Shown piece by piece: positions 15,417 through 29,713 of a DNA stretch of 64,000 nucleotides. The notes below the pieces were generated by a model that ran no database searches, had not been told where the DNA came from, and was given only the letters and a program-made list of their open reading frames with translations. Every line of letters starts with the position of its first letter. The stretch's first letter is position 1. The position numbers and the translations under genes are program-made. The stretch is from contig JAKBAD010000008.1 in NCBI GenBank assembly GCA_021809435.1, positions 1 to 64,000 on the forward strand, in the 5' to 3' direction. The DNA is from Pseudomonadota bacterium. GTDB taxonomy: Bacteria; Pseudomonadota; Alphaproteobacteria; Acetobacterales; Acetobacteraceae.

Positions 15417-15462
15417 CTGGTGCCGTCCGCCGGAATCGAACCGGCGACCTACTGATTACGAA
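15417..15462. repeat. Left attachment site (partial tRNA-Thr copy)
   Basis: These 46 bases are identical to 29668-29713. They represent the tRNA-Thr 3' half from the anticodon stem to the CCA end, minus strand, and match stops at the base after CTGATTACGAA. It is not a functional tRNA. Confidence 0.95.
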
Positions 15463-15582
15463 GCAAGCTCGCCAGGGTGCGGTAAAATGCGATGAGGTGC
15501 AGTAAGCCCTATAATTCAAAGCCTTGCTGATGCCTTTGGCGCAATTACGCGCAATAAAATGTCGCAAATGGCGTCACTGATG

Positions 15583-15600
15583 AGTCCGGTCAGAGTCCGG
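15583..15600 (+). repeat. AGTCCGG direct pair, left end
   Basis: Two AGTCCGG copies, the second as AGAGTCCGG, lie 120 bp inside the left attachment site. The same pair with the same spacing and orientation lies at 29614-29631 next to the right site. Candidate recombination accessory sites. The rest of 15463-15930 has no credible gene; it holds the iterons, an AT-rich tract at about 15690-15740 and probably the int promoter. Confidence 0.55.
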
Positions 15601-15655
15601 GGCTTTCTGTGCTGAAGGTGAAACGTCACGCCGGGGGCAAAATGCGTGAAAATAA

Positions 15656-15813
15656 GGTGTGCCAGGTGTGCCAGCACACTTTGGGGTGTATATTTATATG
15701 TGTATATGTAAACACACATAGATAAATACTATATCTTTTCTGTTTGGTGGTGTGGGGCGGCCTTGGCACACCTTGCCCGAAAAAAGGTGTGCCAGAGGTG
15801 TGCATGTGTGCCA
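15656..15813 (+). repeat. GTGTGCCA iterons, left cluster
   Basis: GGTGTGCCA occurs at 15656-15664 and 15665-15673, inverted at 15764-15772, then again at 15786-15794 with variants at 15797-15805 and 15805-15813. The last group, with its adjoining run of As, is the reverse complement of the cluster at 29310-29336 apart from a 2-base gap. Likely arm-type integrase, excisionase or repressor sites. Confidence 0.7.
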
Positions 15814-15930
15814 AACCGCCGCGCGGCTCTCGGGGGCTGATTTGGCGGCTTGGCCCGCCGGCAAACGCCCTGGGCCTGCCGGCGCCGAATCCCTCTGGCG
15901 CCAGGTGGCCGAGCGTGAAATGCTCGCCCC

Positions 15931-17247
15931 ATGCGCCAGAAGCTCACCAAAACCCTGGTTGATTCCCTCGCTTGCCCGCCTGGGCGCCGGGATGTGCTGG
16001 TGTTCGACTCGGAGCTGACGGGATTCGCGGTCCGTGTGACCGAAACCGGGGCCAAACGGTTCTTGCTGCAATTCACCCGCGCCGGGCGCACAAAGCGGCT
16101 TCCCCTCGGCAAGCATGGCGAGATAACCGTTTATGAGGCGCGCCAGGCCGCGCTTGTGGCGCTCGGCGAGCTGGCAAAGGGCGGTGATCCGGTTGCCGAG
16201 CGTGACGCGATGCAGGCCGCCCTGCGCGCCGCCGAGGCCGAACGCCGCCGCGCGCAAGAGGCCGATGCGTTCACGGTGGATCGCCTGCTGACCGAGTGGG
16301 CCGAGACCGGCTTGCGGGATGCCAGCGAGCGCCACCGCCAGGACGCGCCCCGCGCCATCCGCCGGTTGCTGGCGCCGTGGCTGCATGAACCGGCGCGGGC
16401 GCTCACCCAGGCCCAGGCCCAACAGGCGGTTGACGCCCTGGCCAAAACCTCGCCGGTGATGGCGTCGCGCGTTCGGGCCTATGCGCGCACCGCGTTCGGC
16501 TGGGCCGCGCGGCGGCGTTTTATCCCTGAAAGCCCCTTTGCCGCCATCGAGCTGGAGGTGAAGGAGCGCAGCCGGGAGCGCGTGCTCACGGATACCGAGA
16601 TCGGCGAAATATGGCGCGCGGCGGGCAATCTGGCCCAGCCATGGGGGGCTTATTTCCGGGTTTTGCTGCTGACCTTGCAGCGCAAGAGCGAGGTGGCGGG
16701 GATGCATTGGGCGGAATTGAACGCCGATGGCAGCTTGTGGACCGTGCCCGCCGCGCGCGCCAAAAACAAAAAGGCGCATATCGTTCACCTGTCTGCCCCT
16801 GTGCGCGAAGCCTTGGCCGCCGTGCCGCGCCTCGAGGGATCGCGCCTGGTGTTCACCACCAACGGCAAGGTGCCAATTGCGGCCTTCACCCAGGCGCTCG
16901 ATGCCTTGCGCGCCGAGATCGCCAAGGAGCGCGCCGAGGCCGCGCCGCCAGGCGATGACAGCCGGGGCCTCGAGCCGGTGTTACCTTGGACCATGCACGA
17001 TTTCCGCCGAACGGGCGTGACGGTGCTGGCCGGGTTGGGGTTCGCGCCGCATGTGGCTGACCGGCTGCTGAACCATGTGCAGGGCGCCATAAAAGGCGTG
17101 GCGGCGGTGTATCAGCGGCAAGAGTTTTTGCCCGAGCGTGAGCGGGCGATGACCGCATGGGCGCAATATGTGCTCAACCAGGCCGCTGGCGTGGGGCGAG
17201 GCTCGAACGTGGTGCGGCTTCGCAAGCCCCCAGCTCGGGAGCGGTGA
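15931..17247 (+). CDS. int: Tyrosine recombinase, island integrase
   Basis: This 438-residue integrase is of the P4/DUF4102 type. The N-terminal arm-binding part contains ELTGFAVRVTETGAKRF and GRTKRLPLGKHGEITV; the SAM-like core-binding part spans about 110-205; the catalytic domain follows. All catalytic residues are visible: R251 (TLQRKSEV), the lysine in RAKNKKAH, H356 and R359 (MHDFRRTG), H382 (LLNHVQ) and Y394 (AVYQRQ). It should integrate and excise the element at tRNA-Thr. It begins 468 bp from the left attachment site and reads into the element. A 21-bp palindrome starts two bases after its stop codon. The gene looks intact, so mobility is plausible. Confidence 0.95.
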   Translation: MRQKLTKTLVDSLACPPGRRDVLVFDSELTGFAVRVTETGAKRFLLQFTRAGRTKRLPLGKHGEITVYEARQAALVALGELAKGGDPVAERDAMQAALRAAEAERRRAQEADAFTVDRLLTEWAETGLRDASERHRQDAPRAIRRLLAPWLHEPARALTQAQAQQAVDALAKTSPVMASRVRAYARTAFGWAARRRFIPESPFAAIELEVKERSRERVLTDTEIGEIWRAAGNLAQPWGAYFRVLLLTLQRKSEVAGMHWAELNADGSLWTVPAARAKNKKAHIVHLSAPVREALAAVPRLEGSRLVFTTNGKVPIAAFTQALDALRAEIAKERAEAAPPGDDSRGLEPVLPWTMHDFRRTGVTVLAGLGFAPHVADRLLNHVQGAIKGVAAVYQRQEFLPERERAMTAWAQYVLNQAAGVGRGSNVVRLRKPPARER

Positions 17248-17249
17248 TT

Positions 17250-17270
17250 TCAGCGAACGCCGTTCGCTGA
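17250..17270. promoter_or_regulatory. Perfect 21-bp palindrome after int
   Basis: Ten-base arms TCAGCGAACG/CGTTCGCTGA flank a single C. The inner 15 bases recur exactly at 25841-25855. Without a T-run it is a poor terminator; a repressor operator ahead of the tape-measure gene is more likely. Confidence 0.6.
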
Positions 17271-17362
17271 TTGTGAGGCTATCGCGGCCATGCATCATGT
17301 TTTTGTGACGGTGCTTTTCAAAATATGCTAGGTTTAAAGCCTTACGATTGAAAGGCTTTAAC

Positions 17363-28541: not shown

Positions 28542-28931
28542 TTATGTCTCCACGGTTCTGGCGCGAAACCATGCCGCCAGCTCATCCTCGGCGAGCGTGC
28601 CGGCCGCCAAGCTTTCCATTGCCCGCACGGCCTCGGCCTTCTCGAAGCTCACGCTGTGCCCGTTATCGGCCAGGAACAGACGGGCGATGATCCAGGCGGT
28701 TCGCTTGTTGCCATCCACAAAGCCATGATTGCGGGCCAAGCCGAACGCATAGGCGGCGGCCAGGGCTTGGGCGTCGGGCGAACCATAGGCAGCGAGGTTG
28801 CGCGGGCGCGCGAGGGCCGATTCTATCGCGTTCTGGTCCCTTATGCCCTCTGGCCCGCCATGTTCGGACAATTGCCGGTCATGGATGGCATAGACCAGCG
28901 CCGGGGAGATCCAGCGCCAAGGCGCGGTCAC
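28542..28931 (-). CDS. doc: Doc (death-on-curing) family toxin
   Basis: The 129-residue product is a Fic-fold Doc toxin, with the motif HGFVDGNKRTA (H69 to R77) that binds nucleotide and metal. Doc of phage P1 phosphorylates EF-Tu and stops translation. Flanking segments IRDQNAIESALARPRNLAAY and AAAYAFGLARNHGF are also characteristic. Its ATG overlaps the stop of the upstream AbrB-type gene, so the pair is one operon. On an integrated element it would penalise loss of the element. Confidence 0.92.
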   Translation of the reverse strand: MTAPWRWISPALVYAIHDRQLSEHGGPEGIRDQNAIESALARPRNLAAYGSPDAQALAAAYAFGLARNHGFVDGNKRTAWIIARLFLADNGHSVSFEKAEAVRAMESLAAGTLAEDELAAWFRARTVET

Positions 28932-29155
28932 TTGGCCAGCGCCCGCAATATATCGCGGTCATCATGCATGATCTGTTCGGCCAGCTTCATCTGGCGCTCA
29001 AACTCTGGATCGTAAGGCGTGACCCGGAAGCCGCCGTCTGGCGTTTCGGTTAGGTAAAGCGTGTCGCCTTTCTGCACCTTGAGCTTGGCCATGACCTCTT
29101 TGGACAGGATGACGCCAGAGGATGCGCCAACCGTGGTGATCTTCATCGTCAACAT
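28928..29155 (-). CDS. AbrB/MazE-type antitoxin for Doc
   Basis: A 75-residue protein with a swapped-hairpin AbrB fold at the N-terminus (ITTVGASSGVILSKEVMAKL, VQKGDTLYLTETPDGGFRV) and a C-terminal tail (FERQMKLAEQIMHDDRDI) that would wrap the toxin. I start at ATG 29155 because a GAGG site lies eight bases upstream; an internal ATG at 29146 is an alternative. It is first in the operon and probably represses it at the adjoining CTATATAA palindrome. The classic P1 partner of Doc is Phd; pairing with AbrB-fold antitoxins is known in chromosomal Doc systems. Confidence 0.85.
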   Translation of the reverse strand: MLTMKITTVGASSGVILSKEVMAKLKVQKGDTLYLTETPDGGFRVTPYDPEFERQMKLAEQIMHDDRDILRALAK

Positions 29156-29169
29156 GAAAAGCGCCTCGA

Positions 29170-29191
29170 CTATATAAGGTTCATTATATAG
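29170..29191. promoter_or_regulatory. Operator/promoter dyad of the Doc operon
   Basis: Perfect inverted repeat CTATATAA-6-TTATATAG, centred 25 bp before the antitoxin start, resembling an overlapping -10 box and operator. GGCGCC/GGCGC sequences extend the symmetry. Typical of autoregulated toxin-antitoxin operons. Confidence 0.65.
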
Positions 29192-29224
29192 GCGCCTTGC
29201 CTTGGCCTGTTCAAGGCCGGTTTT

Positions 29225-29336
29225 TGGCACACCTTTTTGGGTTGTGTGCCGGGTGTGCCGCCGATGTGTGCCACAAAAATCTGTTTAATATCATAGTGTT
29301 AAATGGATTTGGCACACATGCACACCTGGCACACCA
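29225..29336 (+). repeat. GTGTGCCA iterons, right cluster
   Basis: TGGCACACC at 29225-29233, GTGTGCC-type copies at 29242-29250, 29251-29259 and 29265-29273, then TGGCACACA, TGCACACC and TGGCACACC between 29310 and 29336. The last three mirror 15785-15815. The 277 bases from here to the AGTCCGG pair show no gene or signal I can support. Confidence 0.7.
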
Positions 29337-29613
29337 TTTTTTGAGCATAAAGGGTGAGACGGACACATGAGACCAGAGCCTGAACGGGGTGCGGCGGATG
29401 ATCGCCGGGCAACCGGATGCCCGGTAGCAGGGCGGTGCGGCGGGTGCCGGCACTGGCGGGTTGATCGTGGGGATGCATTTTGACCGGGCAAGGGGGTGGG
29501 GGGTTTAAGTTCCTGGCCGGTTCGCTCGGCCAACCGCGTTTCAAGCCAACGCACGCCTCCGCAGAATTGGCGAAAATCTTTTTTTTTCGTCTGGTTGATG
29601 GGGTTGGCCAAAC

Positions 29614-29631
29614 AGTCCGGAGAGAGTCCGG
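29614..29631 (+). repeat. AGTCCGG direct pair, right end
   Basis: Same two-copy arrangement and orientation as 15583-15600; it ends 36 bp before the right attachment site. Confidence 0.55.
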
Positions 29632-29667
29632 AAGATGTTCAGCCTGATGCCCGATTTTGAAAGTTTG

Positions 29668-29713
29668 CTGGTGCCGTCCGCCGGAATCGAACCGGCGACC
29701 TACTGATTACGAA
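29668..29713. repeat. Right attachment site (within tRNA-Thr)
   Basis: Identical to 15417-15462. It covers the 3' half of the intact tRNA-Thr up to the anticodon loop, the usual crossover zone for tyrosine integrases. Confidence 0.95.

What the first reader, a model, noticed from the sequence alone, without database searches (positions are those of the whole stretch)
15417..29713. Satellite-like integrated element whose only structural gene is a tail tape measure
The sequence shows a complete integrase, AlpA-like regulator, Toprim primase, DUF927 helicase and resolvase, so it can likely excise and replicate. Terminase, portal, capsid, and all other tail genes are absent, yet a full-length 938-residue tape measure and a small gene behind it are intact and followed by a strong terminator. 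Known satellites (P4, PICI, cfPICI) hijack helper tails or carry head genes; an own tape measure could retarget or resize helper tails, interfere with helper assembly, or be a leftover. This combination is not one I recognise as described.
Basis: partly seen in the sequence, partly recalled or inferred. Interest (0 to 1): 0.78.

Follow-up and report, generated by a model that had tools for sequence, protein, structure and literature searches.

The report
Phage satellite with its own tape measure
A small mobile DNA island in an acid-loving bacterium carries one recognisable gene for building a virus tail, the ruler that sets tail length, and related islands often do the same, which suggests that they spread by customising the tails of other viruses rather than making their own particles.

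Summary
A 14.3-kb island (15417-29716) sits in tRNA-Thr(CGT) between 49-bp repeats. It has an integrase, AlpA-like regulator, Toprim and DUF927 replication proteins, a resolvase and two toxin-antitoxin-like pairs. Its one recognisable virion gene is an intact 938-aa tape measure protein (TMP). It is not a recent deletion remnant. A sister island in a congener keeps the gene order and att site, with TMP at 65% identity and dN/dS about 0.2. A clade-mate TMP lies in an otherwise different island of Acidocella facilis. Among 22 family islands with integrase, Toprim and DUF927, 8 carry a TMP and none hits my capsid, portal, sheath or tube profiles; some add a tail chaperone, baseplate hub or head protease. 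A 40-TMP tree forces at least 8 changes between island and other contexts. Most likely these are satellites that put their own TMP into helper tails, as shown for Vibrio cholerae PLEs (Nature 2026, PMC12987554). 'Not described' is therefore outdated, but a PLE-like strategy in an unrelated, mostly head-less, repeatedly recruited guild is new as far as I searched. Helper, excision and chimeric particles are unproven. No tail chaperone was recognised in the window island.

The parts
15417..15465 (.). attL: 49-bp copy of the tRNA-Thr 3' part
   Evidence: direct repeat D4, 98% identical to 29668-29716
15931..17247 (+). tyrosine integrase, 438 aa
   Evidence: PF13356 2.7e-14, PF00589 3.8e-11, phrog_1 1.1e-48
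17363..20179 (+). tail tape measure protein, 938 aa from GTG (943 aa from TTG 17348)
   Evidence: PF10145 5.3e-12; phrog_2854 7e-29; sister orthologues 65%; dN/dS 0.18-0.21 for window pairs
20172..20516 (+). small helical protein behind the TMP, overlaps its end; found behind the TMP in sister islands; function unknown
   Evidence: 46-50% in G211/G216, 23-28% for two copies in Acidocella facilis; dN/dS 0.42-0.44 for window pairs; AF2 pLDDT 76, no fold match
20550..20578 (+). intrinsic-terminator-like palindrome and T run
   Evidence: perfect inverted repeat I24, sequence
20734..21054 (+). DUF4236 protein; found near the TMP in the sister islands and A. facilis
   Evidence: PF14020 1.9e-20; 82% in G211, 48% in A. 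facilis
21282..21677 (-). PemK/MazF-like toxin
   Evidence: PF02452 1.9e-13
21668..21940 (-). HTH regulator or antitoxin; common backbone gene
   Evidence: PF13560 4.4e-7; hit in 15 of 22 backbone islands
22054..22461 (+). unknown, 135 aa
   Evidence: 57.9% in G211
22458..22727 (+). unknown, 89 aa; a homologue lies just before the A. facilis TMP
   Evidence: 54% over 46 aa, HMM 2e-30 after iteration
22724..22993 (+). unknown, 89 aa
   Evidence: open reading frame only; no Pfam or PHROG hit
23079..24056 (+). unknown, 325 aa
   Evidence: 49% in G211
24138..24401 (+). AlpA-like excisionase/regulator
   Evidence: HTH_17 6.2e-5, below cut-off; position kept in many backbone islands
24783..25823 (+). 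Toprim primase
   Evidence: PF23639 4.5e-29, PF13362 2.1e-15, phrog_510 1e-46
25820..27703 (+). DUF927 helicase/primase
   Evidence: PF06048 1.4e-75, phrog_1139 2.3e-78
27845..28441 (+). serine resolvase
   Evidence: PF00239 1.5e-39
28542..28931 (-). Fic/Doc-like toxin
   Evidence: PF02661 8.7e-18
28928..29230 (-). MazE-like antitoxin
   Evidence: PF04014 4e-5, just below cut-off
29668..29716 (.). attR inside the restored tRNA-Thr gene
   Evidence: direct repeat D4
29669..29744 (-). tRNA-Thr(CGT), integration target
   Evidence: ARAGORN

Best explanation
The island is a phage satellite. It excises, replicates with its own Toprim/DUF927 machinery and is packaged in a helper phage's head. Its TMP (with the small gene behind it) replaces the helper's TMP, so that the helper's tube assembles around the island's ruler and gives chimeric tails serving the island's genome, as shown for PLE satellites. 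Shown here: element boundaries, gene content, an intact TMP under purifying selection, a related TMP cassette in an otherwise different island, and repeated recruitment of different TMPs by islands of one backbone. Inferred: the satellite lifestyle, the helper, the incorporation of the TMP into tails, and the benefit (escape from tail-blocking defences, preference for island particles, DNA-injection specificity, or slightly shorter tails).
For: Att-bounded island. Sister island G211 with exact 54-bp repeats at the same tRNA and host neighbours 89-96% identical. Two congeners (G187, G226) have the same tRNA beside the same right-hand gene with a single att copy and no match to any of 16 island proteins within 19.8 kb and 8.4 kb. 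TMP dN/dS 0.18-0.21 for window pairs and 0.17 for the unsaturated G211-G216 pair (dS 0.32), no stops. Acidocella facilis (G140, named) has a different integrase and no Toprim/DUF927 match but a related TMP, small gene(s), 89-aa gene and DUF4236, plus HNH and S78 head-protease genes. 8 of 22 islands with integrase+Toprim+DUF927 carry a TMP; 0 of 22 hit the capsid, portal, sheath or tube profiles. Others add a baseplate hub (phrog_177 1.9e-93 and 9.6e-108), a tail chaperone (phrog_166 2e-17) or a head protease (phrog_53 1.6e-93). The 40-TMP tree needs 9 changes of the island label, 8 forced by well-supported branches. Precedent: PLE TMP and hub were found in PLE virions, and deleting tmp cuts PLE transduction by 96-99.9% (PMC12987554).
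Against: No helper known: no record of the phage or plasmid collections covers 80% of the TMP, and the listed best rows cover at most 27% of it; the congener TMP hits outside islands (G225, G228, G211:C1) are of contractile type. No tail chaperone, hub, terminase or head-redirecting gene was recognised in the window island. 14 of 22 backbone islands have no detected TMP, so the backbone can persist without it. The small gene behind the TMP evolves faster (dN/dS 0.42-0.44), and two other TMP pairs (G211-G140, G216-G140) give 0.30 and 0.29. dS of the window pairs (1.15-2.4) is near saturation. No excision or particle data.
Confidence: 0.6

Rival explanations
1. The TMP is a weapon. Expressed during infection, it titrates or poisons the tail assembly of incoming phages and protects the host, without being part of an island particle.
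For: In several sibling islands without a TMP the region between integrase and HTH holds defence- or TA-like genes (L095 Bro-N just below cut-off, L096 and L101 PIN domains, L100 PemK, L108 RhuM and Abi_C); L098 has both a TMP and an Mrr-type nuclease. Tail-blocking defences exist on prophages and satellites (Tab, Tai).
Against: The blockers named above are inhibitors, not TMPs. Full-length conservation including the C-terminal region and co-capture of chaperone, hub or head protease in other islands fit assembly better than poisoning.
Confidence: 0.17
2. Prophage remnant or deletion derivative: the TMP is left over from a phage and decaying.
For: The TMP is the only recognised structural gene, and mosaic exchange with phages is clear.
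Against: Same gene order in G211 and, as far as its two short contigs reach, in G216; TMP dN/dS about 0.2, no stop codons; a related cassette in a second backbone (A. facilis); no full-module relative with a related siphovirus TMP among 38 genus genomes.
Confidence: 0.05
3. The island works with the apparently TMP-less contractile phage-like cluster on contig C8 of the same genome, supplying it with a tape measure.
For: C8 carries terminase, portal, scaffold, capsid, sheath, hub, baseplate and endolysin genes by PHROGs but no TMP-sized frame at the usual place.
Against: The cluster is syntenic in G187, which has no match to this TMP. 31 of 38 genus genomes hit Terminase_6N (30 over the cut-off), but only 6 of 38 carry a TMP island. 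The window TMP groups with long siphovirus TMPs, while the cluster has a sheath.
Confidence: 0.06
4. Integrative element moved by general transduction or another route, with the TMP doing something unrelated to virions.
For: No packaging gene was recognised in the island, and mobility was not tested.
Against: At least 8 changes between island and other contexts on the TMP tree, in some islands with other morphogenesis genes, point to a virion role.
Confidence: 0.12

Closest known systems
PLE satellites of Vibrio cholerae (PMC12987554; sections 8 and 9 read whole, other passages and legends)
   Same: Satellite without recognised head genes encoding its own TMP; across the islands here the three PLE11 tail functions (chaperone, TMP, baseplate hub) recur: chaperone+TMP in L033, L080, L081, TMP+hub in L133, TMP+hub plus a chaperone-profile hit in L115.
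   Different: Other backbone (Toprim/DUF927, AlpA-like), host family and tRNA sites; the window TMP groups with siphovirus TMPs whereas PLE tails are contractile; no chaperone or hub recognised in the window island; head proteases in some islands; TMP captured many times.
cfPICI (recalled; passages)
   Same: Integrase, regulator and primase; some cfPICIs are reported to hold putative tmp genes (PMC12987554 Extended Data Fig. 10 legend).
   Different: cfPICIs make their own heads; no head gene was recognised in the window island. L164 (G124), with a head-protease fusion beside its TMP, is nearer to a cfPICI.
Gram-negative PICI / P4-like satellites (recalled)
   Same: Size, integrase at a tRNA, AlpA-like gene, primase and helicase, defence-like cargo.
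   Different: They are described as taking tails from the helper; here an own TMP is carried.
Tai and Tab tail-assembly blockers (passages read)
   Same: Mobile-element genes that act on tail assembly; Tab targets the TMP.
   Different: They are inhibitors, not TMPs.

Membership tests
PLE | satellite-encoded TMP | tested here: met
PLE | tail assembly chaperone beside the TMP | tested here: inconclusive
   No Pfam hit for 20172-20516 or the genes in 22054-22993 and no chaperone PHROG hit; met in sibling islands L033, L080, L081 by profile
PLE | PLE backbone (recalled: other integrase and replication genes, Vibrio host) | not tested
   The backbone here is tyrosine integrase/Toprim/DUF927 in Acetobacteraceae; no direct comparison with a PLE was run
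PICI | 10-15 kb, att-bounded island with integrase | tested here: met
   14.3 kb
PICI | AlpA-type regulator and primase | tested here: inconclusive
   Primase met; AlpA-like HTH_17 below cut-off
PICI | small terminase or capsid-redirecting gene | tested here: inconclusive
   None recognised in Pfam or PHROGs; unknown small genes remain
PICI | no virion structural genes | tested here: not met
   TMP present
PICI | induction and packaging by a helper phage | not testable with these tools
   needs experiment
cfPICI | own capsid, portal and packaging module | tested here: not met
Prophage | head, packaging and tail modules | tested here: not met
   TMP only

The most novel reading that the evidence does not exclude
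The island does not depend on an outside siphophage at all. It rides in the contractile particle encoded on contig C8 of its own genome, kept widely in the genus, which has terminase, head, sheath and baseplate genes but apparently no tape measure. The island brings the missing ruler and so turns a minimal or tailless resident particle into its own delivery vehicle.
Probability: 0.06. Interest if true: 0.88.

Novelty: new variant of a known kind. Interest (0 to 1): 0.64.

Why it matters
PLEs were reported in 2026 as the first satellites known to build chimeric tails, with the benefit left open. If the islands here do the same, tail customisation arose repeatedly in another bacterial family, from several phage types, mostly without own head genes. 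That turns one case into a comparative system: one backbone, with and without TMP, with and without chaperone, hub or head protease. It makes testable what a satellite gains from its own ruler.

Tried and rejected
Searches that led nowhere: relatives of the TMP by pattern scan with the single protein gave none in genome contigs or viral contigs; a second genome-contig scan with alignment A6 gave 3 loci, all already known as G211, G216 and G140. Structure of the small gene 20172-20516: model pLDDT 76, no PDB or viral match at E below 0.001. Helper in the own genome: TerL_ATPase PF03354 absent, Phage_capsid PF05065 absent; the one Terminase_6N hit is the C8 cluster. Other head and terminase families were not searched in the own genome.

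Considered and rejected: deletion derivative (sister islands, dN/dS); one shared origin of all island TMPs (0 of 200 bootstrap trees; the label is nevertheless more clustered than under shuffling, mean 12.7 changes); strong tail resizing. Contractile-type island TMPs have median 589 aa (n=12) against 688 aa in prophages (n=17), Mann-Whitney p=0.004. With 4 of the 17 prophages dropped as near relatives p is 0.024, and one of six sister pairs goes the other way (L033 673 vs L159 547). Siphovirus-type TMPs were left out of that test (islands 938, 918, 855; others 1003, 982, 982, 907, 835), as were L038, L039, L083 and L165, whose context is unclear. The values are not independent, so I call it a tendency. 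In the tree those four unclear rows were counted with the non-island rows, and L164 with the islands although it has a head gene.

Weak points in my counts: island or prophage was decided by me from profiles and reading of the frames. The capsid, portal, sheath and tube profiles come mainly from Mu/P2-like prophages of this family (the capsid profile also holds one siphovirus-like sequence) and frames under 100 aa were not scored, so other head genes could be missed. PHROGs was run on only some genes of relatives. Island ends: of 9 loci tested for repeats, G211 and six TMP-less islands gave 45-65 bp, G140 only 19 bp (at its tRNA-Ser end), L080 none. L115 also has a 110-aa TMP fragment between integrase and TMP. 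In L098 the TMP is 4.2 kb from the integrase. Papers opened but not used as evidence: PMC10690885 (abstract and outline), PMC12409344 and PMC11389934 (passages).

I also added the weaker dN/dS pairs.
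Full report
What is there. Window 15417-29716 is one island between 49-bp direct repeats, the right one inside tRNA-Thr(CGT). Gene order is integrase, TMP, small gene, terminator-like palindrome, DUF4236, PemK/HTH pair (opposite strand), three small genes, a 325-aa unknown, AlpA-like gene, Toprim primase, DUF927, resolvase, Fic/antitoxin pair (opposite strand). The TMP is full length, with a tape-measure profile over residues 11-901. 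GAAAGG precedes GTG at 17363, and its end overlaps the start of the small gene. No second match to it was found in the genome.

Sister islands. G211 contig C24 holds the same island in the same order; no PemK match was seen. The integrase is 90% identical, TMP 65% over all 943 residues, small gene 50%, DUF4236 82%, Toprim 72%, DUF927 66%, Fic 91%. Its exact 54-bp repeats lie at the same tRNA-Thr, and three neighbouring host genes are 89-96% identical to the window's. G216 has integrase, TMP, small gene, DUF4236 and HTH split over two short contigs; the replication part is not on them. Two congeners, G187 and G226, have the tRNA beside the same right-hand gene, a single att copy, and no match to any of 16 island proteins in the next 19.8 kb and 8.4 kb. 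Their left flank does not match the window's, so this shows sites without the island but not a strict before-and-after pair. TMP dN/dS is 0.21, 0.18 and 0.18 for the window against G211, G216 and G140 (dS 1.15-2.4, near saturation), 0.17 for G211-G216 (dS 0.32), and 0.30 and 0.29 for G211 and G216 against G140. Toprim and DUF927 give 0.18 and 0.22; the small gene gives 0.42-0.44 for the window pairs. The TMP is kept like a working gene, the small gene less strictly.

A cassette in a second backbone. Acidocella facilis ATCC 35904 (G140, named) has an island beside tRNA-Ser (19-bp repeat) with a different integrase (24%) and no Toprim/DUF927 match. It carries, in this order, a homologue of the window's 89-aa gene, the TMP (45-54% by alignment), two small-gene homologues (28% and 23%), a 182-aa unknown and DUF4236, and upstream an HNH gene and an S78 head protease. 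In the window the 89-aa gene lies behind the TMP instead. No capsid, portal or terminase was hit among the 11 of its proteins that were scanned, apart from the protease's matches to head-protein families that contain a protease part.

A wider guild. The integrase alignment hits 72 of 397 family genomes (81 places) at 1e-60 or better and 5 of 38 genus genomes (the own genome included). I fetched 60 of the 81 places. With window, G211, G056, G207 and G206 that makes 65 loci, of which 22 hold integrase, Toprim and DUF927; 8 of these 22 hold a TMP, and none of the 22 hits the capsid, portal, sheath or tube profiles. Six TMP-less islands tested are bounded by 45-65-bp repeats, four of them at a detected tRNA gene. 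The TMP islands differ in what comes along: chaperone+TMP+S49 head protease (G207, G206, G056, PHROG names for G207), TMP+baseplate hub (G406, G403), TMP with an Mrr-type nuclease (G393). Loci with other or incomplete backbones carry TMP too (L091, L160, L164, L166, L171). L107 and L160 have a minor-tail gene, and L137 and L138 tail-fibre-like genes. A coiled-coil-like protein (by eye) of about 250 aa recurs near the TMP in L080, L081, L091, L115, L133 and L166, and also occurs in L119, L137 and L138. It was not found in the prophage loci included in that search and has no PHROG match in the two copies tested. It is a candidate redirecting or scaffold protein; the window island has no match to it. 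In the eight TMP-less islands whose variable region I read, five hold defence- or TA-like genes there (L095, L096, L100, L101, L108), the rest unknowns or little.

Many captures. In a tree of 40 TMPs (16 labelled island, 24 other) the island label needs 9 changes, 8 forced by well-supported branches. The window, G211, G216 and A. facilis TMPs form one clade beside siphovirus TMPs, and the other island TMPs lie among contractile-phage TMPs. Such TMPs align poorly outside the core and many rows differ in composition, so the exact number is soft; a single origin was found in 0 of 200 bootstrap trees.

How it most likely works. In PLE11 the satellite TMP and hub replace the helper's in otherwise helper-made tails, and a chaperone is encoded with them. 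Removing tmp cuts transduction by 96-99.9% in three PLEs, and the benefit is open (PMC12987554). The gene sets here are the same kind of parts, the ones that decide which ruler a tail is built on. I therefore infer chimeric tails. For the window island this rests on the TMP alone, because its chaperone (perhaps the small gene), its way into a head and its helper are unknown. No record of the phage or plasmid collections covers 80% of the TMP, and the listed best rows cover at most 27% of it.

Novelty. [quoted passage not shown] My searches for satellite+tape measure, PICI+tape measure, cfPICI+tail, chimeric or hybrid tails, and Acetobacteraceae or Alphaproteobacteria satellites showed no title or abstract start describing this guild (open-licence papers, listings capped). 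It is a new variant of a known kind.

Noticed in passing
own genome G000 contig C8 about 112.0-138.5 kb (L155 from 10025 to L175 16457): A contractile phage-like cluster: terminase, portal, scaffold, capsid, sheath, tail/hub, baseplate and endolysin by PHROGs, tube, fibres and the neighbouring rpmI/rplT genes by eye. It is syntenic in G187, G211 and G140, with no tape-measure-sized frame in the roughly 190-250 bp between the tube/101-aa gene and the next tail gene. Terminase_6N hits 31 of 38 genus genomes. It looks like a domesticated or GTA-like particle without a ruler.
   Followed up: partly
L080 8997-9704, L081 6752-7507, L133 14703-15530, L115 12584-13519, L091 8537-9322, L166 2754-4494, also L119, L137, L138: A recurring coiled-coil-like protein of about 250 aa, in several copies with an N-terminal stretch like LxALRP, found in island loci and not in the prophage loci of that search; possibly a satellite scaffold or redirecting protein.
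   Followed up: partly
L137 16405-16953, L138 16592-17419: Island loci with tail-fibre-like genes and no detected TMP: satellites may also swap receptor-binding parts.
   Followed up: no
L164 9753-13138 (G124): TMP next to a 619-aa head-protease/capsid fusion (phrog_4523 3.7e-115) and an integrase: resembles a cfPICI with its own tape measure.
   Followed up: no
window 13764-15416 and G211: The 544-aa acyl-CoA dehydrogenase gene left of the window island has no close match at that place in G211, where the next gene outward (591 aa, 89%) lies close to the island; the left side of this site is variable.
   Followed up: no
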